Shown: piece after piece, positions 1,737 through 60,490 of the stretch
Layout: each line of letters starts with the position of its first letter
Numbering within the stretch: position 1 is the stretch's first letter
DNA from: Rufibacter latericius
GTDB taxonomy: Bacteria > Bacteroidota > Bacteroidia > Cytophagales > Hymenobacteraceae
Length of the DNA stretch: 64,000 nt
NCBI RefSeq assembly: GCF_003721515.1
Contig: NZ_RJJD01000004.1
Location: 248,001 to 312,000, forward strand
Direction: 5' to 3'
Made by a program: the position numbers and the translations under genes
The notes under the pieces: model-generated
Told to the model about the DNA's origin: nothing
What the model saw: only the letters and a program-made list of their open reading frames with translations
Databases searched by the model: none

Positions 1737-1784
1737 AAAACAGAAGAAGCTGCCCGAGACAACTCAGGCAGCTTCTTCTGTTTT
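1737..1784. terminator. Bidirectional intrinsic terminator
   Basis: Perfect 18-bp stem (1737-1754 with 1767-1784) bounded by A4 and T4, between two converging genes. It can serve both the propeller gene and hemB. Its right arm runs directly into a copy of the dispersed palindrome. Confidence 0.85.
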
Positions 1785-1815
1785 AGGGCTGTTTCTGGTA
1801 AAACAGGTCAAATAC
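1780..1815. repeat. Dispersed palindrome, copy 1
   Basis: Left half GTTTTAGGGCTGTTT, right half AAAACAGGTC. It shares its first bases with the preceding terminator and ends just before the hemB stop codon. Confidence 0.55.
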
Positions 1816-1818
1816 GGC

Positions 1819-2799
1819 TTAGCGCTTCACGTACTGGGCAAACTCCTTCGCGAAGTAGGTGAGGATGATGTCTGCGCCGGCGCGTTTCATGCTGAGCAGC
1901 GTCTCCAGCATGATTTTCTCACCGTCCAGCCAGCCGTTCTGGGCCGCGGCTTTCACCATGGCGTACTCGCCACTCACGTTGTAAGCGGCAATAGGCAGAT
2001 TGGAGTTGTCGCGGAGCGATTTGATCACATCCAGGTAGGAGAGGGCAGGCTTTACCATGAGGTAATCGGCGCCTTCCAGGGTGTCCAGCTCGGCTTCAAT
2101 GAGGGCCTCGCGGCTGTTGGCGGGGTTCATCTGGTAGGTTTTCTTGTCGCCGTGCTTAGGGGCAGATTCCAGGGCATCGCGGAACGGGCCGTAGAAACCG
2201 CTGGCGTACTTGGCGGTGTAACTCATGATGGCCACGTTGTAGAAAGCGTGTTTGTCCAAAAGCTGGCGGATGTGCGCCACGCGGCCATCCATCATATCTG
2301 AGGGAGCCACGATATCGGCACCGGCTTGCGCCTGGGCTAAAGCCATCTGGCCGAGTACTTCCAAAGACGCATCGTTGATGATTTCGCCATTGTCCACAAT
2401 GCCGTCATGGCCATCGGTGCTGTAGGGGTCCATGGCTACATCGGTTGCCAGCACAATGCCGGGGAACTGACGCTTCAGCTCAGAGATGGTCTTCAGGAAA
2501 AGCCCATCGGGATTCTTGCTCTCCTGCGCGAAACGGTCTTTCTTGTCCTCAGAGATATTGGGGAACGGCGCGAAGGCTTTGATGCCCAGCTCCACGCACT
2601 CGCCTACTTCGTCTACCAGACGATCCAGGCTGAAACGCGAGATGCCGGGCATGGACGGTATGGCTTGCTGCACATTCTGGCCTTCGGTGACAAATATGGG
2701 GAAGATTAAATCGTGTAAAGTGAGGTGATTTTCCTGTACCAGATTACGGATGACATCTGATTTACGGTTCCGGCGGGGCCGGCGGGTTAAATGGTTCAT
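1819..2799 (-). CDS. hemB: Delta-aminolevulinic acid dehydratase (porphobilinogen synthase)
   Basis: Condenses two 5-aminolevulinate molecules to porphobilinogen in haem biosynthesis, in the cytoplasm. The frame extends upstream to 2940, but the start at 2799 gives 326 residues, the normal family length, and begins M-N-H-L-T-R-R-P-R-R. The two Schiff-base lysines are visible as K197 (S-Y-T-A-K-Y-A-S) and K250 (Y-L-M-V-K-P-A). The metal-site stretch near residues 120-133 has aspartates where zinc-type enzymes have cysteines, so a magnesium-type enzyme is expected (family knowledge). It converges with the upstream T9SS gene and shares its terminator. Confidence 0.97.
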   Translation of the reverse strand: MNHLTRRPRRNRKSDVIRNLVQENHLTLHDLIFPIFVTEGQNVQQAIPSMPGISRFSLDRLVDEVGECVELGIKAFAPFPNISEDKKDRFAQESKNPDGLFLKTISELKRQFPGIVLATDVAMDPYSTDGHDGIVDNGEIINDASLEVLGQMALAQAQAGADIVAPSDMMDGRVAHIRQLLDKHAFYNVAIMSYTAKYASGFYGPFRDALESAPKHGDKKTYQMNPANSREALIEAELDTLEGADYLMVKPALSYLDVIKSLRDNSNLPIAAYNVSGEYAMVKAAAQNGWLDGEKIMLETLLSMKRAGADIILTYFAKEFAQYVKR

Positions 2800-2983
2800 A
2801 GCAGCGGTTAGGGTTAAGCAAGCGATTCCACTGTCTGGAACGCCTGCTGCTGATACAACAAAAGTGCCCGGCGAAAAGTGTACGCAGAGCTGAATTTTCT
2901 GCCTGCCATTTCTAGCCGACGGCGCAAAGGTACGGCACATGCCGCTCAGATGCTATGTTTTCCCGGATCAAGCGATAGGCAGA

Positions 2984-3019
2984 GGTTTTAAGCCTGGTTT
3001 TAAAAAACGCGCCTAAAAC
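2984..3019. repeat. Dispersed palindrome, copy 2
   Basis: GGTTTTAAGCCTGGTTTT paired with AAAAAACGCGCCTAAAAC, in the hemB-rocD gap, abutting the rocD terminator. Confidence 0.6.
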
Positions 3020-3056
3020 AAAAGGCTGCCCAAACGTGAAGTCTAGGCAGCCTTTC
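3020..3056 (-). terminator. Intrinsic terminator of the ornithine aminotransferase gene
   Basis: AAAGGCTGCC (3021-3030) pairs with GGCAGCCTTT (3046-3055). Read on the minus strand the stem is followed by TTTTGTTTT. Confidence 0.8.
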
Positions 3057-3074
3057 TGTGAGGAAGCTATTGTT

Positions 3075-4316
3075 CTAGAACTCAGCCAACGTTTTCTCAA
3101 TGATATCACAGCATGCGTTCAGTTGCTCCTCAGAAATCACCAATGGTGGTGCGAAGCGGATGATGTCGCCGTGGGTTGGTTTGGCCAAAAGACCGTTCTC
3201 CATCAGTTTCACGCAGACATCCCAGGCGGTGCGGCCATCGGCGGTAGGTTGAATGATGACGGCGTTGAGCAGGCCGCGGCCGCGTACCAGGCTCACCAGT
3301 TCCGGGTGACGGGCTTTGAGTTCGTTCATGCGGGATCGGAAAATCTCGCCCAGGCGCATGGCATTCTCGGTGAGTTTCTCGTCCTGGATCACGTCCAATG
3401 CGGCCACGGCTACGGCGCAGGCCAGCGGGTTACCCCCGAAGGTAGAGCCGTGTTCGCCAGGCTGGATGCAGAGCATGATGCGGTCATCGGCGAGGGCCAC
3501 AGAAACTGGCAGCACGCCACCGGAGAGGGCTTTGCCCAGGATCAGAATATCGGCTTTCACACCATCATAATGAGAAGCCAGGAGTTTGCCGGTACGGCCA
3601 ATGCCCGTCTGGATCTCGTCAATAATCAGAAGCACGTTGTATTTCTCGCACAAGGCTTTGGCGCCGCTCAGGTACCCGTCTGAAGGAACCACCACGCCGG
3701 CCTCGCCCTGGATGGGTTCTACCATGAACGCGCAGATGTGGGCATTTTCTTTCAATGCCTGCTCCAATGCCTCCAGATTGTTATACGGCAACACTTTGTA
3801 ACCCGGCATGTACGGCCCGAAACCTACGGTGCTGCTGGGATCGGTGGAAAAGGAGATAATACCGGTGGTGCGTCCGTGGAAATTGTGCTCCACTACCAGG
3901 ATCTCGGCCTCGTGCGGCGGAATGCCCTTTTCTTTGTAGCCCCACTTGCGGGCCAGTTTCAGAGCGGTTTCCACGGCCTCGGCGCCGGAGTTCATCATCA
4001 ACGCTTTGTCATAGCCGAACAGCTCGGTGAAGTATTTCTCGGCGGGACCCAGTTTGTCGTTGTAGAAAGCACGCGAGGTAAGCGTAAGTTGCTGGGCCTG
4101 CTCGGTAAGCGCCCCGATGATGCGCGGATGGCAGTGACCCTGGTTCACGGCACTGTACGCCGAAAGGAAATCATAGTACCGGTTGCCTTCCACATCCCAG
4201 AGATAAACCCCCTCGCCGCGGCTAAGCACCACCGGCAGCGGATGATAGTTGTGGGCCCCGTATTTGTCTTCTAAGGCAATGGCCTCTTGGCTGGAGGTAA
4301 CTGTGGAAGTATTCAT
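3075..4316 (-). CDS. rocD: Ornithine--oxo-acid transaminase
   Basis: PLP-dependent class III aminotransferase that converts ornithine plus a 2-oxo acid to glutamate-5-semialdehyde plus an amino acid, linking arginine/ornithine breakdown to proline and glutamate. The 413-residue length fits. Visible signatures are [10 protein letters not shown] near the N terminus, [10 protein letters not shown] for cofactor phosphate binding, the [13 protein letters not shown] block, and the PLP lysine in [10 protein letters not shown]. It is a single gene between non-coding gaps, with a clear terminator downstream. The ornithine assignment over acetylornithine aminotransferase rests on overall resemblance. 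Confidence 0.93.
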
Positions 4317-4466
4317 GTGGTAAATAGTTTAAGGTGATTGAAAAGAAGGCGGCGCATCTTCGCTCTCTAAATACGCAGGAACCGCTTGCAGAGATAAATG
4401 TAAAGAAAAGTCTTGAAAGGCTAACGAACGTGCGTGACTAAGGAGGGGAGTGAGCGTATCCGGTAC

Positions 4467-4502
4467 TTTTTTGCCCTGTTTTCCTGAAAACTGCTGCAAA
4501 AC
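4467..4502. repeat. Dispersed palindrome, copy 3
   Basis: TTTTTTGCCCTGTTTTC and GAAAACTGCTGCAAAAC around a CT centre, between the divergent rocD and DUF5522 genes. Confidence 0.6.
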
Positions 4503-4546
4503 AGCATTTCAAATGACGCAGACTTTCATGCGAGCCCATGGCCTTG

Positions 4547-4554
4547 TATCTTTG
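4547..4554 (+). promoter_or_regulatory. Putative -7 element of the DUF5522 gene
   Basis: TATCTTTG matches the Bacteroidota TAnnTTTG box. It lies only 4 bases before the ATG at 4559, so the message may be nearly leaderless. It argues against the longer reading that starts at 4538. Confidence 0.5.
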
Positions 4555-4558
4555 CGGC

Positions 4559-4756
4559 ATGAAGGCCAAACCGCTGCCGCTGGAACCCGGCGACTTTTAT
4601 TTCAACGAGCAAGGGCTCATGGTTTTCACGGCGCAGTACCATCTCAGGCGCGGCTACTGTTGCCAGAGTGGCTGCAAACACTGCCCCTACGGATTCACTA
4701 AAAAGACGAATTCTGCCCCGGCAGATGGAAGCAAAAAGGACGCTGAGGCAGGTTAA
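4559..4756 (+). CDS. DUF5522 family small cysteine protein
   Basis: A 65-residue protein whose core Y-F-N-E-Q-G-L-M-V-F-T, then Y-C-C-Q-S-G-C-K-H-C-P-Y-G-F, matches the DUF5522 family common in Bacteroidota. The C-C-x3-C-x2-C arrangement looks like a metal or Fe-S site, but no function is established. An in-frame ATG at 4538 would add seven residues, but the promoter-like TATCTTTG lies inside that extension, so the ATG at 4559 is preferred. The rpmB promoter follows about 45 bases after the stop. Confidence 0.8.
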   Translation: MKAKPLPLEPGDFYFNEQGLMVFTAQYHLRRGYCCQSGCKHCPYGFTKKTNSAPADGSKKDAEAG

Positions 4757-4801
4757 AACACTTTTGAAGAACACATTAAAGAAAAAAGTTAGGGGCAAGG
4801 G

Positions 4802-4832
4802 TTGACATTGCATAACTTTTTGCGGATATTTG
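4802..4832 (+). promoter_or_regulatory. rpmB promoter
   Basis: TTG (4802-4804), a 20-base spacer, then GATATTTG (4825-4832), one mismatch from TAnnTTTG. The ATG of rpmB is 34 bases further on. Confidence 0.65.
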
Positions 4833-4866
4833 CATCCCTTTTGTAATAAACGATACTAACGATACA

Positions 4867-5106
4867 ATGGCACGAGTTTGTGATTTAACCGGTAAAAGAG
4901 TGCAGGTGGGTAACCGCGTTTCGCACGCCAACAATAAGACAAAACGCAAGTTTTACCCGAACTTGCAGAAGAAGCGCTTCTACATCCCTGAAGAAGATGC
5001 ATGGGTGACTTTGAAAGTTTCTACCTCTGCTATCCGCACTATTTCTAAGAACGGTATTTCTGCCGTTTTGAAGAAAGCCAAAGAAGACGGTTACATCGTT
5101 TACTAA
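4867..5106 (+). CDS. rpmB: 50S ribosomal protein L28
   Basis: A 79-residue basic protein beginning M-A-R-V-C-D-L-T-G-K-R, the N terminus of bacterial L28, with the family's N-R-V-S-H-A-N-N-K-T-K-R block. It is a structural component of the large ribosomal subunit. In many Bacteroidota rpmB is followed directly by rpmG, a DUF4295 gene and ftsY; here a secreted aminopeptidase gene starts 10 bases after the rpmB stop and separates it from rpmG. Confidence 0.97.
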   Translation: MARVCDLTGKRVQVGNRVSHANNKTKRKFYPNLQKKRFYIPEEDAWVTLKVSTSAIRTISKNGISAVLKKAKEDGYIVY

Positions 5107-5115
5107 GCTTCTGCC

Positions 5116-6735
5116 ATGAAGGCTCTGCGACACCTTTGTTTTACATTGCTTGTGTCGCTGCCGATAGGGGTGACCGCGCAAAATACCGGCCCGGACAAAC
5201 CTGCGGATTTCCTGGATAAAGAATTTCACCGGCAACGGAGAGAGGCCCTGCGGCAAAAGCTGCCGGCCCACTCCGTTGCCGTTTTGTTTTCCAACCCTTT
5301 GAGAAACCGGGCCAACGATGTGGACTTCAACTTCCATCAGGACCCTGATTTCTATTACCTCACCGGCTACCGCGAGCCCAACTCCGTGCTGCTGCTGTTC
5401 TCTGACCAGCACATGGTCAACGGCGTGGCCACGCAGGAAGTATTGTTCACGCAACCCCGCAACCCGCAGCGCGAGTCCTGGACCGGCAAGCGCCTGGGCG
5501 AGGAAGGCGCAAAGCAGCACCTGGGGGTAACGCACGCGCTGCCCGCCACCGCTTTCGCCAACTTCAAGCTGGACACGGCTGCCTTTGACCAGATCCTCTT
5601 CCTGAGCCTGCCTTCTGACGTGCGCAGCGAGCCCGGCGACAAAGCCGATTTGTACGATCTGGTGGCGCAGTTCCGCCAGAAAATAGGCCTCCGGCCCGAT
5701 CAGGATTTCGCCCACCAGGAACTTTACCAGATCATCAAACAGTATGATGCCCTCTCCGGAGACAAGGTGCAACTGGAGGTGCAGCGCCAAATGGGCGCCA
5801 ATCCAAACCTCAGCAACAACGCCTTCCTGAAAAGTTACCTCGCCGCCAAGGATGCGCCTGCCCGGGCTGCCTTGGTCGCCAACATGCCCAAAGAGAAGTT
5901 TGATTTATCTGCCCTTGAGACGGTGCTGGCCGAGATGCGGGAAACCAAATCGCCGGAGGAGTTGAAGTTGCTTCGCAAGGCGGTTGCCATGTCTGCGATC
6001 GGGCAGTTGGAGGTGATGAAAGCCATGCAACCCAACATGTCTGAGACCGAGGTGCAGGGCATCCATGAGTTCGTCTATAAAAAATACGGTGCTGAGTACG
6101 AAGGCTATCCGTCTATTGTGGGCGCAGGCAACAACGGCTGCATCCTGCACTACATCGAGAACGAGAAACCGAAGCTGGGTAATGAGCTGGTCTTGATGGA
6201 CCTGGGCGCCGAGTACCACGGCTACACCGCCGATGTGACCCGCACCATTCCGGCCAACGGCAAGTTCACCCCGGAGCAGAAACAAATCTATGAGCTGGTG
6301 TATGCCGCCCAAGAAGCAGGTTTTAAGGAGTGCAAAGTAGGCAACGCCTTCAGTTCCACCAATGCAGCCGCGCAGGCCGTCTTAGCCGAAGGCCTGATCA
6401 AACTAGGCATCATCAAGAAAGCCGATGAGGCCCGCCGCTATACCATGCATGGCGTGTCGCATTACCTAGGGCTGGATGTGCACGACCGTGGTTCCTACGG
6501 GCCGTTCAAAGCCAATACCGTCATCACCGTGGAGCCCGGCATCTACATCCCCGAGGGGAGCCCCTGCGACAAGAAGTGGTGGGGCATTGGGGTAAGGATT
6601 GAGGATGATATCCTGATAACCGACAAAGGCTGGGAGAACCTCTCGGCGGGCGCACCCCGCAGTGTGAAAGACATTGAGGCGGCCATGGCCAAGCCCAGCC
6701 CGCTGGATAACTTTAAGCTGCCTGAGTTAAAGTAG
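5116..6735 (+). CDS. Secreted Xaa-Pro aminopeptidase (M24B)
   Basis: Metallopeptidase removing N-terminal residues before proline. Residues 1-21 form a signal peptide ending V-T-A-Q, so it acts outside the cytoplasm, unlike E. coli PepP. An aminopeptidase-P N-terminal domain (about residues 35-180) precedes a pita-bread catalytic domain with all five dinuclear-metal ligands visible: D362 and D373 (M-D-L-G-A-E-Y-H-G-Y-T-A-D), H449 (G-V-S-H-Y-L-G), E473 (V-E-P-G-I-Y) and E496 (R-I-E-D-D). It is 539 residues long, typical of the longer secreted Bacteroidota members. The 10-base gap to rpmB suggests co-transcription with L28, while rpmG downstream has its own promoter. Confidence 0.93.
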   Translation: MKALRHLCFTLLVSLPIGVTAQNTGPDKPADFLDKEFHRQRREALRQKLPAHSVAVLFSNPLRNRANDVDFNFHQDPDFYYLTGYREPNSVLLLFSDQHMVNGVATQEVLFTQPRNPQRESWTGKRLGEEGAKQHLGVTHALPATAFANFKLDTAAFDQILFLSLPSDVRSEPGDKADLYDLVAQFRQKIGLRPDQDFAHQELYQIIKQYDALSGDKVQLEVQRQMGANPNLSNNAFLKSYLAAKDAPARAALVANMPKEKFDLSALETVLAEMRETKSPEELKLLRKAVAMSAIGQLEVMKAMQPNMSETEVQGIHEFVYKKYGAEYEGYPSIVGAGNNGCILHYIENEKPKLGNELVLMDLGAEYHGYTADVTRTIPANGKFTPEQKQIYELVYAAQEAGFKECKVGNAFSSTNAAAQAVLAEGLIKLGIIKKADEARRYTMHGVSHYLGLDVHDRGSYGPFKANTVITVEPGIYIPEGSPCDKKWWGIGVRIEDDILITDKGWENLSAGAPRSVKDIEAAMAKPSPLDNFKLPELK

Positions 6736-6775
6736 CGGCATCGGTCAAGGAGGTCAAGTGCCAAACGGAGAAGCT

Positions 6776-6813
6776 GTTTTAGGTTTGTTTTGTGGAAAAC
6801 AGGCCCAAAATGA
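6776..6813. repeat. Dispersed palindrome, copy 4
   Basis: GTTTTAGGTTTGTTTT paired with GGAAAACAGGCCCAAAA, between the aminopeptidase and rpmG genes. Confidence 0.65.
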
Positions 6814-6906
6814 ACTTTTGGCGGGCGCTTGGACTTAGGAGAGTGGAAAAGAAGAGGCTTTGGGGCATGAACTGCGTGATTCCCAAAGTAAAAAAGTAGA
6901 AAAGCA

Positions 6907-6938
6907 TTTGTATTTACAGGACTCGGCTCGTATATTTG
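6907..6938 (+). promoter_or_regulatory. rpmG promoter
   Basis: TTTG (6907-6910), 20 bases, then TATATTTG (6931-6938), an exact match to the Bacteroidota consensus, 27 bases before the rpmG start codon. Confidence 0.75.
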
Positions 6939-6965
6939 CAGTCCTAAATAAAAATCAACTTCGCG

Positions 6966-7154
6966 ATGGCAAAGAAAGCTAAAGGCAATAGAGTTCAGGT
7001 GATTTTGGAGTGCACTGAGCAGAAAAACTCCGGCGTACCTGGCATGTCTCGGTATATCACTACCAAAAACAGAAAGAACACTCCTGAGCGTTTGGAGATG
7101 AAGAAGTTCAATCCGTTCATGAAGAAAGTAACTGTTCATAAAGAAATTAAATAA
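6966..7154 (+). CDS. rpmG: 50S ribosomal protein L33
   Basis: A 62-residue protein with the L33 features [24 protein letters not shown] and K-K-F-N-P. It lacks the paired C-x2-C zinc motifs of C+ L33 forms and keeps only one cysteine, so it is a zinc-independent type. It has its own strong promoter and is followed after two bases by the DUF4295 gene. Confidence 0.97.
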
Positions 7155-7156
7155 CC

Positions 7157-7309
7157 ATGGCTAAGAAAGTAGTTGCAACCCTGAAGACCGCCACTGGTAA
7201 AGACTGGGCAAAGGTGATTAAAGCTGTTAAGTCTCCTAAGACTGGAGCCTACACCTTCAGAGAAGAGATGGTGCCGATTGACCAAGTGCAAGACGCCCTC
7301 AAAAAATAA
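7157..7309 (+). CDS. DUF4295 family small basic protein
   Basis: A 50-residue protein starting M-A-K-K-V-V-A-T-L-K and ending D-A-L-K-K, read directly from the sequence and shorter than most gene-caller limits. It matches the DUF4295 family, which in Bacteroidota is found between rpmG and ftsY. The size, basic charge and constant location next to L33 suggest a ribosome-associated protein, but that is inference. It starts two bases after the rpmG stop, so the two are translated from one message. Confidence 0.9.
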   Translation: MAKKVVATLKTATGKDWAKVIKAVKSPKTGAYTFREEMVPIDQVQDALKK

Positions 7310-7339
7310 TTGCCGATATCGCATTGATGATATACCTGT

Positions 7340-7367
7340 AAAAGTCCCTCCATACCAGGGACTTTTT
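7340..7367 (+). terminator. Intrinsic terminator of rpmG-DUF4295
   Basis: AAAAGTCCCT pairs with AGGGACTTTT (7357-7366), followed by more T. It separates the ribosomal genes from ftsY. Confidence 0.85.
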
Positions 7368-7417
7368 TGGTATATTCTTATTTCTAATTCTTATCTCCAA
7401 TAGTTCCCTAGACCGCT

Positions 7418-8377
7418 ATGGCACTTTTCGGTTTCTTCAGCAAAGACAAAAAAGAATCTCTGGACAAAGGTCTGGAGAAAACCAAAACCAGTTTCTTTGA
7501 CCAACTCAGCAAAGCCGTAGTAGGCAAGTCTAAGGTGGACGAGGAAGTCCTGGATGAGCTGGAGACCGTGCTGGTACACGCCGATGTAGGAATTGGGACC
7601 ACTGTCAAGATCATTGACCGCATTGAGAAGCGCGTGGCCCGTGACAAGTACGTGGGGACCTCAGACCTGGACCGCATCCTACGCGAAGAGATCATGGACC
7701 TCATGGAGGAGAACAAAGGTGGCGTGGCCGAAGACTTTAGCTTACCTGATACTGGCGGCCAACCGTACGTGATCATGGTGGTTGGCGTGAACGGCGTAGG
7801 CAAAACGACTACTATTGGTAAGTTAGCCTCTCAATTCCACAAAGCCGGCAAGAAAGTAGTGCTAGGCGCTGGTGATACCTTTAGGGCTGCCGCCGTGGAC
7901 CAACTCAAGATCTGGGGCGACCGCGTAGGCATTCCCGTGATTGACCACGGCATGAACACAGACCCAGCCTCGGTAGCGTATGACGCCGTGAAGAAAGGCG
8001 TGGAGATGGGTGCTGATGTGGTCATCATTGACACAGCCGGCCGTCTGCACACCAAAGTGGGTTTGATGAACGAATTGTCCAAGATCAAGCGCGTAATGCA
8101 GAAAGTGATTGAAGACGCGCCGCAGGAAGTATTGCTGGTACTGGACGGTAGCACCGGGCAGAACGCTGTGATTCAGGCCCGCGAGTTCACCAAAGCCACC
8201 GAAGTAACTGCCCTGGCTGTAACCAAACTGGACGGAACCGCCAAAGGTGGGGTCATCATCGGTATCTCAGACGAATTCAAGATTCCGGTGAAATACATTG
8301 GCGTAGGTGAGCGCGTGGAAGACCTGCAGGTGTTTGACAAGCGCGAGTTCGTGGACTCCTTGTTCTCCAAGAAATAG
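7418..8377 (+). CDS. ftsY: Signal recognition particle receptor FtsY
   Basis: GTPase that receives SRP-ribosome complexes at the inner membrane for co-translational insertion. The 319-residue form has a short N-terminal region instead of the long acidic A domain of E. coli, then the NG domain. Visible GTPase motifs are G-V-N-G-V-G-K-T-T-T (P-loop), D-T-F-R-A-A-A, D-T-A-G-R-L and T-K-L-D-G-T-A-K-G-G. A copy of the dispersed palindrome with an overlapping hairpin lies right after the stop. Confidence 0.97.
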   Translation: MALFGFFSKDKKESLDKGLEKTKTSFFDQLSKAVVGKSKVDEEVLDELETVLVHADVGIGTTVKIIDRIEKRVARDKYVGTSDLDRILREEIMDLMEENKGGVAEDFSLPDTGGQPYVIMVVGVNGVGKTTTIGKLASQFHKAGKKVVLGAGDTFRAAAVDQLKIWGDRVGIPVIDHGMNTDPASVAYDAVKKGVEMGADVVIIDTAGRLHTKVGLMNELSKIKRVMQKVIEDAPQEVLLVLDGSTGQNAVIQAREFTKATEVTALAVTKLDGTAKGGVIIGISDEFKIPVKYIGVGERVEDLQVFDKREFVDSLFSKK

Positions 8378-8383
8378 TAAAGC

Positions 8384-8422
8384 TGTTTTGGGCCTGTTTT
8401 GAAGAAAGTAGGCTCAAAACAG
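8384..8422. repeat. Dispersed palindrome, copy 5
   Basis: CTGTTTTGGGCCTGTTTT paired with GTAGGCTCAAAACAG, starting 7 bases after the ftsY stop. Confidence 0.65.
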
Positions 8423-8448
8423 GAAAGCCTTTCCTGTGCTTCTTAATT

Positions 8449-8580
8449 CTTCCTGATTCAAGTTTTCAACTTGAGATATGTGGAAGTAAAAGAGGTCTGA
8501 AATGTATATCTTGAGGCTGTCGCCTCACTGAAGTTGAAAACTTCAGACCATAATAGGTCCAAGTTGAAAACTTGAACAAG
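8449..8580. repeat. Block of three related small hairpins
   Basis: Three palindromes share the core AAGTTnnnAACTT: 8458-8474 (TCAAGTTTTCAACTTGA), 8528-8546 (CTGAAGTTG, then AAAACTTCAG) and 8560-8574 (CAAGTTGAAAACTTG). GGTCTGAA/TTCAGACC-type bases flank the block. It resembles the REP-like elements scattered in Bacteroidota genomes; it has no coding capacity. Confidence 0.6.
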
Positions 8581-8707
8581 AGATAATAAAGAAGAGCTCG
8601 GAATCAGGCTATTTATAGGCTGATTCTAATAAAAGAGGCGCAAAGTAAACCAATCACCCCAGTTTGGTTGTTGCACTCCATAAGTAAGAATTCCCTAAGA
8701 CAGGCAC

Positions 8708-10075
8708 GTGAAAGTAAGATCGCTTAAACAAGACAAATACAACGTTATCACGCTGGGTTGCTCCAAAAACCTGGTAGACTCTGAAGTGCTCATGGGCCAG
8801 TTGAAGGCCAACGACCGCCAGGTGGTGCATGACTCAGAGAAAGATGACGCCAATATCATCATCGTGAATACCTGCGGCTTCATTGACAACGCCAAGCAGG
8901 AATCCATTGACACTATTCTGCGCTACGCCGATGCCAAAGAAGCCGGAGCCATTGATAAACTCTATGTCACCGGTTGTCTTTCGCAGCGTTACAAGGATTC
9001 CCTGGAGGCCGAAATTCCGCAGGTAGACGCTTACTTCGGGACCCTGGAGTTGCCACAGCTCCTGAAAACCCTGGAAGCCGATTACAAGCACGAACTTATT
9101 GGCGAGCGCTTGATCACCACGCCTAAGCACTACGCTTACTTCAAGATCGCCGAGGGCTGTAACCGTCCCTGCTCGTTCTGTGCCATCCCGTTGATGCGCG
9201 GCAAGCACGTAGACCGTCCCATTGACAGCCTGGTGAAAGAAGCCACGCGTCTGGCCAATATGGGCACGAAAGAATTGATTTTGATTGCCCAGGACTTGAC
9301 CTACTACGGTCTGCAGCACTATGGCGAGCGCAAGCTTGCCGAGCTGTTACAGCGTCTCTCAGACGTGAACGGCATTGAGTGGATCAGGATGCAGTACGCC
9401 TACCCAAGCCAGTTCCCGATGGATGCGCTGGACGTGATGGTAGAGCGCGAGAACATCTGCAAGTACCTGGACATGCCGTTGCAGCACATCTCTGACAACA
9501 TGCTCAAGACCATGCGCCGGGGTATCTCCAAGCGTCGTACGCTGGAGTTGGTAGATACCATCCGTCAGCGCGTACCAGACATCGCCCTTAGAACCACCTT
9601 GATTGCTGGTCACCCCGGTGAAACGCAGCAGGACTTTGAGGAGATGTACCGTTGGGTAGAGGAAACCAGATTTGATCGTCTTGGTATCTTCACTTACTCG
9701 CACGAAGAAAACACGCATTCCCACACCTTGGTAGACGATGTACCGGATGAGGTGAAGCAAGAACGTGCCGATGCTATCATGGAACTGCAGCAAGGTATTT
9801 CCATGGAGATGAACGAAGAGAAAGTAGGCAATACCTACAAAGTGCTCTTCGACCGCAAGGAAAGTGGCTATTTCGTGGGCCGTACCCAGTACGACTCTCC
9901 GGAGGTAGACAACGAGGTTCTGGTTCCCGCGGGCAGCACCTACGTGCGCCTGGGAGATTTCGCCCAAGTGAAAATCACCGATTCTTCAGACTTCGACCTG
10001 TACGGAGAGGTAGTAAGCAACAATTACGCTCCGGCAGAGAAAGAAGCTTCCGCGCATTTACCGTCTGTTTCCTAA
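8708..10075 (+). CDS. rimO: Ribosomal protein uS12 methylthiotransferase RimO
   Basis: Radical-SAM Fe-S enzyme that adds a methylthio group to the conserved aspartate of ribosomal protein S12. The 455-residue protein shows the UPF0004 N-terminal domain with its three cluster cysteines (T-L-G-C-S-K-N, N-T-C-G-F, T-G-C-L-S), the radical-SAM motif E-G-C-N-R-P-C-S-F-C near residue 150, and a C-terminal TRAM domain. The L-G-C-S-K-N and S-F-C-A-I-P forms favour RimO over the tRNA enzyme MiaB. Translation starts at GTG. The last codons and the stop lie inside a copy of the dispersed palindrome. Confidence 0.95.
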   Translation: MKVRSLKQDKYNVITLGCSKNLVDSEVLMGQLKANDRQVVHDSEKDDANIIIVNTCGFIDNAKQESIDTILRYADAKEAGAIDKLYVTGCLSQRYKDSLEAEIPQVDAYFGTLELPQLLKTLEADYKHELIGERLITTPKHYAYFKIAEGCNRPCSFCAIPLMRGKHVDRPIDSLVKEATRLANMGTKELILIAQDLTYYGLQHYGERKLAELLQRLSDVNGIEWIRMQYAYPSQFPMDALDVMVERENICKYLDMPLQHISDNMLKTMRRGISKRRTLELVDTIRQRVPDIALRTTLIAGHPGETQQDFEEMYRWVEETRFDRLGIFTYSHEENTHSHTLVDDVPDEVKQERADAIMELQQGISMEMNEEKVGNTYKVLFDRKESGYFVGRTQYDSPEVDNEVLVPAGSTYVRLGDFAQVKITDSSDFDLYGEVVSNNYAPAEKEASAHLPSVS

Positions 10076-10091: not shown

Positions 10092-10110
10092 AAAGATTTA
10101 ACTCTTTAGG

Positions 10111-10199: not shown

Positions 10200-10299
10200 T
10201 GTTGATGTAGGTTACAAAGCATAAGAGATTGATTCTTACTTCAGGTTGCTCCATAGGGACAATAGAGGGTGAATAGGTTATAACCAACGCTCCAGTACC

Positions 10300-10339
10300 T
10301 GTTTCAAGCCTGTTTTTACCAAATCGCCCTCAAAACAGA
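10300..10339. repeat. Dispersed palindrome, copy 7
   Basis: TGTTTCAAGCCTGTTTTT paired with AAATCGCCCTCAAAACAG, about 160 bases upstream of bshC. Confidence 0.6.
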
Positions 10340-52703: not shown

Positions 52704-52706
52704 TCT

Positions 52707-52769
52707 CAACAGCCCTTAAACAGAGAAGGCCACCTGCACAAGGTGGCCTTCTCTGTTTAAGGGCTGTTG
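52707..52769. terminator. Very long bidirectional terminator hairpin (29-bp perfect stem)
   Basis: 52707-52735 pairs without mismatch to 52741-52769 around the loop GCACA. It separates the converging hydroxylase and small lipoprotein genes. Confidence 0.85.
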
Positions 52770-52782
52770 GAGTAAATGGAGC

Positions 52783-53299: not shown

Positions 53300-53354
53300 A
53301 GTGACGGGTTTTCTTTTTACACGAAGAATTAGGTACTGAAAGATGGTTGATTTT

Positions 53355-53419
53355 ACCAGTAGCTATAAAACAGAGAGGCCCGTCTTCTGGACGGGCCTCT
53401 CTGTTTTATAGCTACTGGT
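53355..53419 (-). terminator. Very long terminator hairpin (30-bp perfect stem)
   Basis: 53355-53384 pairs without mismatch to 53390-53419 around the loop TTCTG, ending 6 bases beyond the protease stop codon. Confidence 0.8.
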
Positions 53420-53424
53420 GTAGG

Positions 53425-54600: not shown

Positions 54601-55043
54601 AGTCAATCGTTTTGAGTTAAAGACAGTTTGCAACGTAACCTTGTGCTACGCACTATCGTAACCGCTCATTTTTCTTTATGGTTCATTCAACTTTGAAAAG
54701 AAGATGAAGTAGTACTGCTAATAGAATAAAAAGGCGAGGAAATATTATATATAATAGGGCTTTAGCCTTGCTGCTTAAGGTTCTTGTTGAATAATTCTTA
54801 TGGATTTGTAATTAGTTAAGTAGAAGTTGCGTTTTGGTATAATGCGTTACCTGTTAATAGCTTAGAACAAGGAAAAACCCTAAAAGAGATGGCTTCAGGA
54901 TGATTGTTGAGTTTGTTTCTTTAAGGTTCTGATTTCTACTTACTCTTTTAAGTTCTTTATTTCTAATGGGCATGGATGAGATGTTCTATAAAGGCTGTCT
55001 TTTTAATAGTTTATAAAAGTTACTAGTAACATGATCTTGTTAG

Positions 55044-55098
55044 AGCCCGTTGCCATAATATATTAAAAATTTAATATATTATGGCAACGGGCTTTTTG
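55044..55098 (+). terminator. Orphan intrinsic terminator (24-bp perfect stem)
   Basis: 55044-55067 pairs with 55070-55093 and is followed by T5 on the + strand, with no T-run on the other side. The nearest + strand gene upstream ends at 52703, so it may end an unannotated small RNA. Confidence 0.75.
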
Positions 55099-55379
55099 TT
55101 ACAACTTATTTGAACTTCCTATTTACAGGTAATTACCTTCCTCTATTGCTCTATGCTATTTCACTTAATTAGATAACAACTGGTTAAGTAAGTGAAACTT
55201 GATTAAAGCTTAGGTTTTTGATCCAAAAAAGAATCTACTATTCATAAAGGCCTTTGTTGTGCATTGAAACTCTTTACTCATTTCACTCCAAAATATGTGT
55301 TTTTACCTGAGTAGGAAAGAGGTCTGAGCCTTATTAGTTTAGGGTGTTTCATACAAAATTTAGACAAGTATAGTTTGAT

Positions 55380-55443
55380 TTTATTGGATAGTTTCTAAAA
55401 TTAAGTATGCATGCATACTTAATTTTAGAAACTATCCAATAAA
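55380..55443. repeat. Perfect 64-bp palindrome with no spacer
   Basis: The 32 bases from 55380 (TTTATTGGATAG...) are the exact reverse complement of the 32 bases to 55443, centred between 55411 and 55412 on TGCATGCA. There is no loop and no mismatch. It is not flanked by a T-run typical of terminators. Confidence 0.9.
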
Positions 55444-55664
55444 TGTCTATGGTTTAATCTAGTAATATACTTATATTTCAACTAAAGGTTATATGGTTTA
55501 AATAATTAAATTTATACCTTATAAAAGAAACTTAGGCAATGTCAAGATGGGAAGAGTTATATGTATTTACATCGATTAAGCTTTATGCAAATATGATTAT
55601 TTTGATCGAAAATTGTTTTAATGCCTATTGATACATATTTCTAATTGTGTTTGATAGAATTTAA

Positions 55665-55709
55665 TAAACATGCGCCTTACGTGGTAAAATGCATGTTTAT
55701 GTACGTTTG
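55665..55709 (+). promoter_or_regulatory. Putative promoter with 9-bp dyad before the giant T9SS gene
   Basis: TACGTTTG (55702-55709) is an exact TAnnTTTG box. TAAACATGC (55665-55673) and GCATGTTTA (55691-55699) form a perfect inverted repeat just upstream, positioned like an operator. The implied leader is about 110 bases. Confidence 0.5.
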
Positions 55710-55827
55710 CGGGATAAGTACAATTTATAAAAGTGGTGGATTGATAGATAGGATCACCAAATTTGTAGGACTAGTTAAAAGAGATAACTAAGTAATACAA
55801 TAATTTACAATGCCTATTACCCATTTT

Positions 55828-58800
55828 ATGAAAAAATTGTACTCAACCAGTGATGGCTTCATTAATGAATCATGTTTACACTGGCTGCTAATAGTTGCGT
55901 CAGTTTTTAAAAAAGGCAAATATTACCGAATTAATTATTTAGGTAAAGTTGCCACCATTGTGCTAGTACTTATTGCTTTTACTGCAGTTTCCAATGCTTT
56001 CGCACAAACTAATTATGCGCCAGTTGCTAGTAACGTAACTGCTAATAGAATTAACAATATTGGAAGACAGCTCATTCGCCCGCTTCAAGGTACGGATGCC
56101 GAGGGACAGGTACTTACTTATATAATAACTGATCTAAACCTTGGAGTTGGAGGTGGTAATAGGGGAGTAAGTGGTAGTTTGCATAAAGGAAATGTTACAG
56201 GGGTGCTAGTGGTTGGTGATATATTATCGGCATCAGAGGTGCAAAATCTTTTCTATACGCCTCCTACTTCACAACAGGGGAATCAAACTGCTACACTTGT
56301 TAATGGCACGCATAGCTTTACTTACGTTGTGAATGATGGAGTAAATAATTCTACTCCAGCCACATACTATCTTCCGGTCGGGCAGGCTCCTGTTCCCTCC
56401 CCAACTAGTATGATCATTAGTCCTGTATTAAATACAGCAGGTGAAATCAGCATACCATCTCCTTCTGCAACAGGTGGGGCAATAAACGGATATATCATTG
56501 TAAGACCAGCAACTACCCAAGGTCAACTTCATTACAGCACTACCCCGACAGGTGTCAAAACATTAGTTGGATCAACTGCGGCAACGGTGAATAGTGCCAC
56601 TGTCTTCTTATGGTTTACGCCTTCCGCTTCTTACGAAGGTATTGCTACATTCACTTATGTTGCAAGAAATGGGGATGGAAACACTACAACCGCCGCCAAC
56701 CAGGCTACTTATTCTATTCCGGTCTATAGTAAAAGACCAGTTGTAAGCAACGTTACTACGGTGGCTATTCCAAAAACTGCTGGAGAGAAACCAATAAATC
56801 CTTTGACTGCTACAGCTATTTTAGAAACAACTATCTCTAGTTTCATTATTTCTAATTTGCCTACTGCTAGTGCCGGTACATTGCGCATTAATGGTTCTCC
56901 GGCCACGGCGGGCACATATTCTGCTACAAACGGACAATTGGCAGGATTAACTTTTGAACCAAATCCAAATCTTGGATCTGGCACTACCAGTGTGACATTT
57001 AGCTTCCAGGCAACCAACAACGAAGGAGCTATTAGCTCAGGAACGGCTATTTACACTATTCCTATCCCTAATGACAATGCTTCGGTTTACTCAGTGGCTA
57101 AAACATCTTTTAATAAAGACGCACTGTCAAATGGCATTATATTAGCTACCCTTGCAGATGCAGATGGAGGAATTGTGTCTGCATCTGCAGTAACAGTAAT
57201 GCCCAACGGAATGGCTCTTAACCCTTCTACTGGAGCAATCACTGTTAGTAACATTGATGAGCTAAGTGCAGGTGAATACACAAGGTATATCAACACAGTT
57301 GACGCAAAAGGAGGTAAGTCGTACATAACAGTAGTCATCAACATTGTAAATGATAGAGAGGCTGTTTATACTACTACCAACACGTTCTTTACAAATGTTG
57401 GCCAGGGAGTGACATTAGCTACGGTAAGTGATTTGGATGGGGCAATAGTCAATGCTTCAGCAACAGGTTTAGAAAGCTGGATGACGTTAAATCCTACTAC
57501 TGGGGCCATCACAAGAAATGGATCCGCTGCTATTCCCGCAGGTGCTTACACAAAGATCATTAAAATACTAGATGCAGCTGGGGGTAAATCAGATGCAGAA
57601 GTGACTATTGTAATTAATAATGCAACGGCTTCTTATAATTATATCTCGCAGCATTATTCTATTTATGCCTTAAAACCAAATACAGTGGTAGGTACGGCTG
57701 TTCTTTCTAGTGGAGCTGCAATATCAACAGCTACCCTTGCACCAGGGGCTACTGCTTTACCTAGCTTCCTGAGGTTAAATCCTGATGGAAGTATAGCTGT
57801 TAATACAAATAAAGTTGTTGTAGGAAAATACTCCAGTATTATCAGATTAAATGGCTCTATAGATGCACCTGTTGTTATAGATGTAAATGATGACATTTAC
57901 CAAATTAACAATGAAGCATTTAAGTTAGGTGATAATAACTACAGGCTAACAACGGCTGAGGCTAATAAAAGAGGGGAGGTTTGGAAGACTACCCCTGTGG
58001 ACCTTTCTAAGTCTTTTGAAATCACGTTCAAAGCAAACTTTGGGAGTATAGATGCCAATGGAGCAGATGGTATTGCTTTTGCCTTGCAGCGGCATGGCAG
58101 TAATCCTCTTTTCGCTTACGGGCAGACCGGAGAAGGCCTAGGGGTAGGGCACGGCGCAAGTACTGCAAATCCAAGAACAGGTGGTATCTCCCCTTCTGTA
58201 GTAGTTGAGTTTGATACATGGCAAAATACAGCAGTGGCAGCAAGTATTGAGCCGGTGTATGATCACCTTGCTGTATTCTTAAACGGAGAAGAAAGAGCCC
58301 CTGTTACTCCTGTTGTTCCAATGAAAGGTACAACTGCTGCTCCAGTAAACGTAGAGGATGGGGCAAACCATTTGGTTAAAATCATTTGGAATAAAGCAAC
58401 CAATAAGCTCTCTGTTTACTTTGACAATAGCTTAAGAACAGAATATAGTTCAGATTTAATTGCAAATGTCTTTGGTAACAACCCAATGGTTTACTTTGGT
58501 TACTCTGCCAGTACAGGTGCAAGTATGAATGAACAAAAGATTTCTGAGATTAATTTCTCTCTACTTGATACTGATGGTGATGGGTTTGCTGATGCCAGTG
58601 ACTTAGATAGTGACAATGATGGCATTTCAAACCTAGTTGAATCAGGTAAAGACAATAATGGTAACTTCATCAATCCATTTGGAGACCAGAATAATGATGG
58701 ATTAACCAACTACAAAGATCCTGTGTTCTGTGCAAGTATAGGAAGTTTCCTGAATAACAAAGGCGTTTGTGCTAGCTTAGATGTTGATGGTGATGGTCTA

Positions 58801-60321
58801 ATCAATGCACTTGATTTGGATAGCGATAATGACGGTATTCCAGATGCTGTTGAAGCAAATGATGGCGTGTTGAAGTCTAATATGACTCTAAGTGGTCAAT
58901 ACCCTGTTTCATTTTACTCTGTTCAAACTGATACAGATAGAAATGGGATGATAGATGCTGTGCAAGGGGAGAATGCATTGCTAAATGGTGATAAGGATGG
59001 GGATGGAATACCAAATGCTTTAGACCTTGATTCTGATGGAGATGGAATAGTAGATGCAGTTGAGGCTAACAATGGGGTGTTGCCGGCAGATATGACCTTA
59101 AATGGCCAATACAGTGTAGCTTTTATGTTCTTAAATGACCTGAATCTAGATGGTATAAATGATGCTCTTGCTGCTAACCCATTATTTACTAAAGACAGGG
59201 ATATGGACCAGGATGATTTGTTTAACTTCTTAGATCTTGATAGTGACAATGATGGTTTGCCAGATGTCTTGGAGGCGCAAGATCAAAATAGAATGGTAGT
59301 TAAGAAAGGTTTAGATATCAATAGGAATGGTATTGATGATGCATACGATGTTATTATAAGTGGTGGTGCTGCTTTGACTCCTCTTAATACAGATGGTGAT
59401 TCTAATCCAGACTTCCTTGATCTAGATAGTGACAATGACCTGTTTTTGGATTTTGAAGAAGCGTTCGATAAAAATGGTGATGGTAAATCTGAAGATGACT
59501 TTATCAAAATGGCAAGTGAGTTTGGAGAAAGGGTAAATGATAAAACAATTTACACCCTTACGCCGGAGAAGAATGGGCGTCCAATTTGGTTGGCTTATGC
59601 TTCTGACTCTAGGCTTAATTTATTAAGTACTAAAAGTAGTTTGCCAGCATTGTACAGAGACGTAAATAGAAATGGTCTTGTAGATTTATTTGATTCTCAA
59701 GCTTTCGGTGAAGAGTCTACTGTGAGTACTACAAATTACTCTTTCCGAAGTGCAGGTGCAAATGTCCCGCTTCCTGTTAAGTTAATCAATTTCTCTGGTT
59801 CTCAAAAAATAGGGGGGATTCAGTTAAAGTGGGCTACTGCTGCTGAAAAAGATAATGACTTCTTCCAAGTAGAGCGTAGTCAAGATGGTAAGGCCTTTGC
59901 TCTTATTGGCCAAGTGAAAGGAAACGGAACCAGCAATGTATTGCAGAGCTATAGCTTCGTAGACGCTTCTGCTCCAGCAGGTACTGTGTACTACCGCCTG
60001 AAGCAAGTTGATTTTGATGGCAAATTTGAGTACTCCAAGGTAATTGCTTTGAAAGCAGATGGTAAGACTAATGCTCAAGCTTCTTTGAGTGTATACCCTA
60101 ATCCAACTTCAGGGAAAGTATTCTTTACTTCTGCTGAACTGGAAGGTGCTGCCACAGTGACCTTGTATAATGCAAATGGTCGTGCGATTTCACAGAAGCA
60201 AGTTGAATTGAAAGTTGGGGAGCCAATTGCTCTTGATTTATCTGCCCAAGCTGCAGGTGTCTACTACCTACAGGTGCAGACTGATGTCAACAAAGTTACA
60301 ACTCGCGTAGTAAAGCAATAA
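55828..60321 (+). CDS. Giant secreted lectin/TSP3-repeat protein with T9SS domain
   Basis: A protein of about 1497 residues. The ATG at 55828 (M-K-K-L-Y-S-T-S) is preferred; an ATG at 55810 adds six residues. The leader is unusually long: about 50 residues precede the hydrophobic helix and its A-F-A-Q cleavage site. Cadherin-like and putative-Ig repeats fill roughly 60-690, an L-type (legume) lectin domain lies at about 690-915 ([16 protein letters not shown]), then acidic TSP3-type calcium-binding repeats (D-L-D-S-D-N-D-G-I) to about 1215, a fibronectin-like segment (about 1310-1415) and a T9SS type A domain (V-Y-P-N-P-T-S-G-K to V-V-K-Q). It is likely a calcium-stabilised surface adhesin binding sugars. 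Confidence 0.9.
58566..59460 (+). repeat. TSP3-type repeat region inside the giant T9SS gene
   Basis: Repeated D-x-D-x-D-G units, seen at DNA level as variants of GATAGTGACAATGATGG near 58606, 58818, 59030, 59237 and 59424. Two larger units also repeat ([15 protein letters not shown] versus [15 protein letters not shown]), which suggests internal duplication of a block of about 70-75 codons. Confidence 0.8.
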
Positions 60322-60336
60322 GGAATCTGTTTTATT

Positions 60337-60386
60337 CCAAAACAGCAAGGGCCACCTCTTTATAGAGGTGGCCCTTGCTGTTTTGG
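60337..60386 (+). terminator. Long intrinsic terminator (23-bp perfect stem)
   Basis: 60337-60359 pairs with 60364-60386 around TTAT, 15 bases after the giant T9SS gene; T-rich sequence follows. Confidence 0.85.
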
Positions 60387-60455
60387 TCCTTTTAGTGTTT
60401 CACACTTCTAATGAAAAAGTACCGTTCACAGCAAAGAAGTTGAATGCTTGGTGCT

Positions 60456-60490
60456 TTATGCCTGTTTCCTGAAAAGTAGGTCGAAAATAG
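60456..60490. repeat. Dispersed palindrome, copy 28
   Basis: TTTATGCCTGTTTCC paired with GAAAAGTAGGTCGAAAATAG; the only copy found right of 54 kb. Confidence 0.5.

What the first reader, a model, noticed from the sequence alone, without database searches (positions are those of the whole stretch)
1780..60490. One diverged palindrome family occupies almost every intergenic gap (about 28 copies in 64 kb)
Seen in sequence: about 36-bp imperfect palindromes with outer arms GTTTTAGGC/GCCTAAAAC and inner arms CTGTTTTC/GAAAACAG, found between genes throughout 1.7-53.3 kb and once at 60.5 kb. Clear copies are at 6776, 25882, 33086 and 53262. They are strongly diverged from each other yet keep the same double-arm plan, which suggests an old family under some selection (structure or protein binding) and not recent transposition. 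Positions vary: after stops, before starts and next to terminators. I do not recognise this as a named element. Options are a REP-type repeat with its own RAYT, a nucleoid-protein site, or an RNA hairpin affecting message ends.
Basis: seen in the sequence. Interest (0 to 1): 0.75.

Follow-up and report, generated by a model that had tools for sequence, protein, structure and literature searches.

The report
Rufibacter chromosome-wide 40-bp palindromic DNA tag
Bacteria of the genus Rufibacter carry thousands of copies of one 40-letter symmetric DNA signal, mostly between genes and kept in place across species by selection on its DNA letters, so an unknown protein probably reads it; a related genus has a different signal of the same sort.

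Summary
The window holds 37 copies (≥18 bits; shuffles average 0.06) of a 39/40-bp palindrome, CTGTTTTAGGCCTGTTTT-N3/4-mirror. In 864 kb of this genome there are 428, against 1 in reversed sequence: about 2,800 per genome by extrapolation. It marks Rufibacter: all 46 stretches with the strict pattern, and all 16 genomes of the genus, against 0-6 matches in each of 21 sister-genus genomes.

It is not a mobile repeat or, for most copies, a hairpin. Arms do not covary except in 19 of 232 copies that resemble terminator stems. Perfect copies mostly differ in loop and flanks. Congeners keep a site in 97 of 108 orthologous gaps. In aroA all 8 Rufibacter examined carry a site that three alignable outgroups lack, without an indel. 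One Rufibacter has the motif but no RAYT-type match.

Best reading: a DNA site read by a symmetric protein, behaving like DNA uptake sequences (species dialects, a different motif in a sister genus, scarcity on large secondary contigs). The reader protein is unknown, and no type IV pilus ATPase was found. A chromosome-architecture protein is the main rival.

The parts
1778..1817 (.). copy of the 40-bp palindrome, convergent gap; its left arm overlaps a terminator-like hairpin at 1736-1785
   Evidence: 38.6 bits; hairpin
2983..3021 (.). copy, tandem gap, 39 bp
   Evidence: 38.4 bits
4465..4504 (.). copy, divergent gap
   Evidence: 31.4 bits
6774..6813 (.). copy, tandem gap; a site in the same gap in all 7 congeners examined
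   Evidence: 41.6 bits
8383..8422 (.). copy, 5 bp after the stop of the SRP54-domain (ftsY-like) gene
   Evidence: 44.3 bits; domain
8609..8648 (.). copy, tandem gap
   Evidence: 27.4 bits
10054..10093 (.). copy overlapping the stop codon of the RimO-like gene 8708-10075; sister genus g2 has its own motif at the same gene end in both genomes examined
   Evidence: 31.2 bits; (L060:10375, L061:10777) with gene places; the name RimO is recalled
10299..10338 (.). copy, tandem gap
   Evidence: 39.8 bits
10585..10624 (.). weak copy inside the bshC-like gene
   Evidence: 20.3 bits
12485..12524 (.). copy inside the 5-FTHF cyclo-ligase-like gene, whose convergent neighbour is only 12 bp away; kept in 6 of 7 congeners, no indel against two outgroup loci
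   Evidence: 27.4 bits
14455..14493 (.). copy; my caller leaves this stretch as gap, a 110-aa ORF covers it
   Evidence: 29.6 bits
19388..19427 (.). copy, convergent gap
   Evidence: 26.4 bits
20575..20614 (.). copy 89 bp from the left gene; 87-89 bp in five congeners
   Evidence: 35.1 bits
22525..22564 (.). weak copy inside a gene
   Evidence: 20.7 bits
25768..25807 (.). copy
   Evidence: 31.7 bits
25879..25918 (.). copy
   Evidence: 35.3 bits
26908..26947 (.). copy filling most of a 54-bp gap; a site in this gap in all 7 congeners
   Evidence: 29.8 bits
28060..28098 (.). copy
   Evidence: 25.6 bits
29653..29692 (.). copy
   Evidence: 28.9 bits
30925..30964 (.). copy
   Evidence: 30.4 bits
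31007..31046 (.). copy
   Evidence: 35.3 bits
31875..31913 (.). copy, 39 bp
   Evidence: 35.8 bits
33085..33123 (.). copy, divergent gap
   Evidence: 33.4 bits
34353..34391 (.). copy, 1 bp after a stop
   Evidence: 24.5 bits
34618..34656 (.). copy
   Evidence: 25.9 bits
35339..35378 (.). copy
   Evidence: 34.4 bits
37019..37058 (.). copy, convergent gap
   Evidence: 32.8 bits
39314..39353 (.). copy 46 bp from the left gene; 44-46 bp in four congeners (one of them weak, 17 bits)
   Evidence: 32.8 bits
40552..40591 (.). weak copy inside a gene, kept in 1 of 4 congeners compared
   Evidence: 21.1 bits
40957..40996 (.). copy, convergent gap
   Evidence: 32.5 bits
42145..42184 (.). copy, divergent gap
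   Evidence: 35.8 bits
46588..46627 (.). weak copy inside a gene
   Evidence: 21.4 bits
47684..47723 (.). copy, convergent gap
   Evidence: 21.1 bits
47770..47809 (.). copy, convergent gap
   Evidence: 37.6 bits
51344..51383 (.). copy
   Evidence: 34.4 bits
53261..53300 (.). copy, convergent gap
   Evidence: 38.9 bits
60451..60490 (.). copy, tandem gap
   Evidence: 30.2 bits

Best explanation
Shown: it is a DNA site of 40 (or 39) bp made of four GTTTT/AAAAC cores on two mirrored half-sites. It occurs about once every 2 kb in the window genome, is abundant in all 16 genomes of its genus, keeps its place across species, and for most copies is held by its letters and not by base pairing. Inferred: a two-fold symmetric DNA-binding protein reads it. 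Most likely role, inferred: a self-DNA tag of the kind of neisserial DUS and Haemophilus USS. A biased DNA-uptake or DNA-recognition step followed by recombination would keep restoring and spreading good sites, so that they pile up in permissive places (after stop codons, in terminators, in variable parts of genes), drift in dialects between species, and are scarce in acquired DNA. The protein is unknown and would not be a standard type IV pilus component. I put about 0.9 on 'protein-read DNA site' and the figure below on the full reading including the uptake-tag role.
For: Copy number and control: 428 in 864 kb, 1 reversed. Genus restriction. No arm covariation in 213 of 232 copies (4.55 vs 4.59, sd 0.09); 19 near-perfect copies are the exception. 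Copies share no flank, and R. ruber perfect copies mostly differ in loop. Orthologous retention: 97 of 108 syntenic gaps; in 87 position-matched pairs the two central columns of each core are 0.90-1.00 identical, flanks 0.31-0.46. Sites in coding DNA without indel: aroA in 8 of 8 Rufibacter and in none of 22 outgroup genes; two more genes. Dialects: column 7 is T in about 0.9 of G006/G013 arms, 0.19 in G000. Sister genus g2 has an unrelated 30-bp motif of the same class: 436 in 540 kb, 1 reversed, no cross-hits, no significant orientation bias, spacing more even than a gap-matched null (variance/mean 0.70 vs 1.21, sd 0.17, at 5 kb, 0 of 300 permutations). Four large secondary contigs hold 3 sites in 160 kb; the longest site-free run, 22 kb, contains an integrase. 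Copy number, permissive placement, terminator link, dialects, relative evenness and scarcity in acquired DNA are described for DUS/USS (passages of PMC3630211, PMC2397512, PMC7811141). Riemerella, also Bacteroidota, needs ComEC, DprA, ComF, RecA and four proteins of unknown function to transform (abstract of PMC8459023); ComEC-domain proteins are in 12 of 12 genomes checked.
Against: No PF00437 ATPase over cut-off in the four Rufibacter searched, whereas the known DUS receptor ComP is a type IV minor pilin (abstract in the listing). A 40-bp palindrome has no counterpart among uptake sequences known to me. In G000 spacing is at most marginally even (0.67 vs 0.77, sd 0.08, at 5 kb, p=0.09; 0.84 vs 0.80 at 20 kb), and gap occupancy depends on length and convergence, not on distance to other sites. 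USS in genes are reported biased to gene termini and to one orientation (abstract of PMC2346458); here in-gene sites are even along genes and g2 orientation is not significant. No site was gained in 30 comparisons of site-less gaps, though these gaps are short (63-247 bp) and some other gaps do hold extra copies in one species. A cytochrome-oxidase operon is site-free for 17.6 kb. ComEC also occurs in sister genera without a visible motif. Whether Rufibacter transforms was not looked up. Core identity is inflated because matched sites were found with the same profile.
Confidence: 0.42

Rival explanations
1. Sites of an abundant chromosome-architecture (nucleoid-type) protein that binds about 2,800 places, perhaps as two dimers on phased A-tracts, and bends or insulates DNA at gene junctions. 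Its specificity changed between genera.
For: Symmetric 40-bp site with cores about one helical turn apart; copies per gap level off near one in long gaps, and 29 of 29 convergent gaps of 250 bp or more are occupied; in G000 occupancy is independent of neighbouring sites; near-absence on secondary contigs also fits a chromosome-only function.
Against: Of the nucleoid-protein families only PF00216 was searched: one full-length HU per genome; no candidate protein. Concerted change of very many sites within the genus and a different motif in the sister genus are hard to get for a housekeeping function.
Confidence: 0.33
2. A transcription-unit-end device: a bound protein acts as a roadblock or insulator at 3' ends, helping intrinsic terminators.
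For: Density peaks 0-90 bp after stops; convergent gaps of 60-120 bp are occupied in 19 of 23 cases, tandem 21 of 88, divergent 1 of 8; co-occurrence with terminator-like hairpins, odds ratio 3.2 in G000 and 1.6 in g2, partly because some copies are themselves stems; one conserved site lies inside a gene whose convergent gap is only 12 bp.
Against: In-gene sites are not concentrated at 3' ends (57 sites, p=0.23 against uniform) and two mid-operon in-gene sites recur at the same spacing in three genomes. Secondary contigs have genes but almost no sites. The 3' bias is also what a permissive-place model predicts.
Confidence: 0.15
3. REP/MITE-like mobile palindrome, amplified once in the ancestor and decaying.
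For: Palindrome, mostly intergenic, confined to one genus; 15 of 16 Rufibacter have 1-6 Y1_Tnp matches.
Against: G006 has the motif and no Y1_Tnp match; loops and flanks mostly differ among perfect copies; no insertion at the in-gene sites that could be aligned; conservation is sharply column-specific, not a uniform decay.
Confidence: 0.03
4. RNA hairpin or terminator family.
For: 19 of 232 G000 copies are near-perfect palindromes (2.8 expected); 13 of the 19 have outward pairing and 11 a nearby T-run; in G005 18 of 67 (8.1 expected). Weak arm-arm signal at columns 7 and 8 over all copies, z=2.9 and 3.4.
Against: The other 213 G000 copies are at the null, and so are G006+G013 overall (7.37 vs 7.34, sd 0.13). 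The centre changes between 3 and 4 bp in 25 of 87 orthologous pairs. The sister motif is not palindromic. No Rfam match at gathering score in the window.
Confidence: 0.03

Closest known systems
Neisserial DNA uptake sequence (DUS) and Pasteurellaceae uptake signal sequence (USS)
   Same: Thousands of copies, about one per 1-2 kb, permissive places, link to terminators, dialects by lineage, scarce in acquired DNA (papers read in passages).
   Different: Here a 40-bp palindrome (DUS first known as a 10-mer, USS modelled as 31 bp); no type IV pilus ATPase found; no gene-terminus bias of in-gene sites; uptake untested; Bacteroidota.
REP sequences / REPINs with RAYT
   Same: Palindromic, extragenic, high copy number (abstracts in the listing); near 3' ends (recalled).
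   Different: No obligate Y1_Tnp partner, no pairing constraint in most copies, no insertion seen, no conserved tag beside it, positions fixed between species.
IHF/HU-type nucleoid protein sites
   Same: A 35-40 bp footprint with A-tracts (recalled) would fit; a possible third motif in genus g6 resembles a doubled IHF consensus (recalled consensus).
   Different: About 30 bits of information (sum over columns) is far above IHF's (recalled); only one ordinary full-length HU per genome.
Intrinsic terminators
   Same: A minority of copies lie in terminator-like stems.
   Different: Most copies show no pairing beyond chance and no T-run rule.

Membership tests
DUS/USS | Hundreds to thousands of chromosomal copies of one motif, far above chance | tested here: met
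   428 in 864 kb vs 1 reversed
DUS/USS | Lineage dialects congruent with phylogeny | tested here: inconclusive
   Dialects met: consensus differs between G000, G005 and G006/G013, g2 motif unrelated. Congruence with a tree was not computed
DUS/USS | Scarce in recently acquired DNA | tested here: met
   3 sites in 160 kb of four large secondary contigs; 22-kb integrase-bearing run without sites. Few regions tested; that the contigs are acquired is inferred
DUS/USS | Relatively even spacing | tested here: inconclusive
   Met in g2 at 5, 10 and 20 kb, not at 40 kb; not significant in G000 (p=0.09 at 5 kb, 0.07 at 10 kb)
DUS/USS | In-gene copies biased to gene termini and one orientation (reported for USS/DUS) | tested here: not met
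   57 in-gene sites uniform, p=0.23; g2 in-gene orientation 60:81, p=0.09
DUS/USS | Receptor is a type IV pilus component | tested here: not met
   No PF00437 match over cut-off in G000, G005, G006, G013; pilins themselves were not searched
DUS/USS | Biased uptake of tagged DNA | not testable with these tools
   needs experiment
REP/REPIN | RAYT (Y1_Tnp) in the genome | tested here: not met
   G006 has the motif and no Y1_Tnp match at E<=0.001; the other 15 Rufibacter have 1-6
REP/REPIN | Hairpin-forming arms under pairing constraint | tested here: not met
   213 of 232 copies at the null (4.55 vs 4.59, sd 0.09), 19 near-perfect copies are the exception
REP/REPIN | Conserved tetranucleotide beside the palindrome | tested here: not met
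   no flank column above 0.1 bits in 196 copies with a 4-bp centre
Mobile element (MITE) | Insertion relative to an empty site | tested here: not met
   no gaps in the 2 of 53 queried in-gene sites with an outgroup relative in hand; aroA equal length by eye against three outgroups
Rfam RNA family | Match at gathering score | tested here: not met
   0 in the window
Nucleoid-protein site | Known binding protein | not tested
   only PF00216 searched; no protein-DNA test possible

The most novel reading that the evidence does not exclude
Hymenobacteraceae use a chromosome-wide DNA code read by a protein class not yet described. Each genus has its own high-copy motif (Rufibacter 40-bp palindrome, g2 asymmetric 30-mer, possibly a third in g6) that is neither an uptake sequence nor a REP. 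The code and its reader re-specify together at thousands of loci and can overwrite protein sequence.
Probability: 0.35. Interest if true: 0.93.

Novelty: new variant of a known kind. Interest (0 to 1): 0.84.

Why it matters
If it is an uptake tag, it would be, as far as I know, the first in Bacteroidota, and would point to a pilus-independent uptake receptor and to genus-level barriers to gene exchange. If it is an architectural site, it would be an unusually information-rich and fast-changing nucleoid code. Either way the reader protein could be sought by one pull-down, and natural dialects give ready-made swaps to test.

Tried and rejected
RNA-hairpin, REP-RAYT and MITE readings were tested and rejected as above. 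Type IV-pilus uptake was tested with PF00437 only: nothing over cut-off in the four Rufibacter searched (G006 has one match below cut-off); in g2, G021 has one over cut-off and G016 only one below it. Even spacing in G000 was tested two ways: not significant. g1-g2 co-occupancy of 3' ends: 15/6/2/15 of 38 orthologue pairs (p=2.7e-4), but 10/5/1/2 when both gaps are 100 bp or more (p=0.33), so it may only reflect gap size; distances to the stop did not correlate. A LytTR-like direct-repeat reading of the g2 motif (recalled consensus) was considered and not tested. No reader protein was found. Sister genera g3, g4 and g5 gave no convincing motif in the limited stretches examined. Literature: 9 of 10 searches listed no paper that I recognised as describing this repeat; the library lacks most subscription journals. 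Papers: PMC8459023 and PMC2346458 abstract and outline; PMC3630211, PMC2397512, PMC7811141, PMC8565304, PMC12306157 passages; all others listings only.

Rows dropped and limits: searches use window genes starting before 45 kb and 7 congeners, and only gaps whose two flanking genes are found in the same order and strands; matched sites were found with the same profile, which inflates core identity. In one search, 22 outgroup aroA genes were scanned; a YEDHR-type anchor was found in 8, of which three (G065, G023, G018) show equal length by eye; in the other 14 the score given is the best anywhere in the gene, at most 0.6. R. ruber and XAAS loci were picked because they hold perfect copies, so their strength is biased upward. 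Searches show absence of an indel; whether sites came by mutation or by recombination is not shown.
Full report
OBSERVATION. On 864 kb there are 428 copies of at least 20 bits with 1 reversed. The window has 37. Information sits in four T/A cores, GTTT(T) at columns 2-6 and 14-17 of each mirrored half; the columns between are weak. Copies share no flank: best 31 of 60 letters among all pairs of 4-bp-centre copies.

MOSTLY NOT A HAIRPIN. Over 232 copies the arms agree at 10.86 of 18 columns, 10.47 expected if independent; two columns (7 and 8) have mutual-information z of 2.9 and 3.4. In 11 weak columns the mean is 5.02 against 4.64 (sd 0.09) for permuted arms. One search splits this: 19 copies with 9-11 matches (2.8 expected) carry the excess, 13 of them with outward pairing and 11 with a nearby T-run, as in terminators; the other 213 are at the null (4.55 vs 4.59, sd 0.09). 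In G005 18 of 67 copies are near-perfect (8.1 expected); in G006+G013 20 of 63 (14.9 expected, within the permutation range). Choosing copies by profile score could hide a weak covariation. Terminator-like hairpins and sites co-occur at 3' ends (odds ratio 3.2 in G000, 1.6 in g2).

WHERE IT LIES. 2.11 per kb non-coding and 0.10 per kb coding; convergent gaps of 250 bp or more are 29 of 29 occupied, tandem gaps of 250-500 bp 58 of 74, divergent ones of that size 19 of 29. Density is highest 0-90 bp after stops. In G000 gap occupancy depends on gap length and convergence and not on the distance to other sites; in g2 it also rises with the distance to the farther neighbouring site.

PHYLOGENY. 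A sequence-only profile (R1) reached its scoring limit of about 112 in all 16 genomes of the genus, window genome included, against 0-6 matches in each of 21 genomes of five sister genera (two with one strong match, best E 1.4e-7 and 2.4e-6) and 0-8 in each of 22 genomes of other families. A strict pattern searched in one genome for each of 84,980 species returned 46 stretches, all titled Rufibacter; a G009 contig has the same length, 605,317, as one of these records, so genus g1 is Rufibacter. One viral contig matched a looser pattern (not followed up).

SELECTION IN PLACE. In seven congeners 97 of 108 syntenic gaps whose G000 partner has a site also have one; 0 of 30 syntenic gaps of 60 bp or more without a G000 site have one. 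In 87 position-matched pairs the two central columns of each core are 0.90-1.00 identical while ungapped flanks are 0.31-0.46; several sites keep their distance to a gene within 1-3 bp with unrelated flanks. The centre switches between 3 and 4 bp in 25 of the 87. In the most distant species columns 1, 7 and 8 are only 0.20-0.23 identical, because those species use another dialect (YCGTTTTTGG).

WRITTEN INTO GENES. 57 of the 428 sites lie more than 60 bp inside called genes, with no significant concentration along them. In aroA all 8 Rufibacter examined have a site starting 50 bp before HTYEDHR (21.9-40.9 bits); the 22 outgroup genes scanned score at most 0.6, and G065, G023 and G018 have the same number of residues there. 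Two further genes, the only ones of 53 queries with an outgroup relative in hand, align with no gap at the site. So these sites arose without insertion and with amino-acid changes.

A SECOND MOTIF. Dyad statistics, checked on Rufibacter as positive control, revealed in genus g2 (G016, G021; not named by any search) an unrelated asymmetric motif, SASTTTT..GCC..AAA.CMTASCGTTTT: 436 in 540 kb against 1 reversed, 2.84 per kb non-coding, 0.32 coding, no significant orientation bias, spaced more evenly than a null that permutes counts within gap and gene classes at 5-20 kb but not at 40 kb. Neither motif is found in the other genus's sequence. Both motifs lie at the same RimO-like gene end. A third, weaker palindrome may exist in genus g6 (26 hits against 8 reversed at a low cut-off).

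ACQUIRED DNA. Four large secondary contigs of G008, G012 and G003 have 3 sites in 160 kb; three chromosomal controls have 0.35-0.45 per kb; three small contigs that look chromosomal (apparently between rRNA operons) have sites. The longest site-free run in the G000 pieces, 22 kb, contains an integrase and two nucleases, but the next, 17.6 kb, is a cytochrome-oxidase operon, which tells against a strict spacing rule.

MECHANISM. Shown: DNA-level site, genus-specific, position kept. Inferred: symmetric protein. For the role I weigh an uptake-type tag (0.42) against architecture (0.33). For the tag: dialects, permissive places, sites inside genes, scarcity on secondary contigs, even spacing in g2; comparable traits are reported for DUS/USS in the passages read. 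Against: no pilus ATPase, palindrome, weak spacing signal and strong convergent preference in Rufibacter, no gene-terminus bias. Riemerella shows that Bacteroidota can transform with partly unknown proteins (abstract), so the missing pilus is not fatal.

NOVELTY. The nine literature searches listed no paper that I recognised as reporting this repeat or uptake sequences in Bacteroidota; this is limited to open-licence papers and to titles, abstract beginnings and the passages read.

Noticed in passing
L060-L065, L081, L128-L147 (genus g2; e.g. L061:9299-9347): A different high-copy 30-bp asymmetric motif, about 0.8 per kb, in a sister genus.
   Followed up: yes
L040, L041, L079, L080 (genus g6; e.g. 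L080:1822-1850): Possible third high-copy palindrome ATAA-n4-TTGATnATCAA-n4-TTAT, resembling two overlapping IHF consensus sites (recalled consensus).
   Followed up: partly
L017:6006-20000 and L018:1-7914: 22-kb site-free stretch with tyrosine recombinase, Mrr-type nuclease and DNA/RNA endonuclease, probably a genomic island; absence of the motif may mark acquired DNA.
   Followed up: partly
L187-L190, L192-L193, L196-L197: Large secondary contigs of three Rufibacter genomes almost lack the motif: 3 sites in 160 kb.
   Followed up: yes
L235: Single viral contig (IMGVR_UViG_2839759663_000002) with one copy, perhaps a provirus edge in a Rufibacter isolate (guess).
   Followed up: no
window 55380-55443, 53355-53419, 52707-52769, 60337-60386: Long perfect inverted repeats (23-32 bp arms); the one at 52707-52769 overlaps a weak motif-like stretch at 52753 seen with the early profile.
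   Followed up: no
L001 and places listed: 15 of 16 Rufibacter have 1-6 Y1_Tnp matches, many in frames of about 180-200 aa (RAYT-like); no tie to this motif was seen.
   Followed up: partly
L191, L198, L203: A 7.3-7.5 kb contig shared by three genomes, apparently from between rRNA operons, has two in-gene sites kept at the same spacing.
   Followed up: partly
G022 and G035: Isolated strong matches to the Rufibacter motif in two sister-genus genomes (E=1.4e-7 and 2.4e-6); possibly transferred DNA.
   Followed up: no
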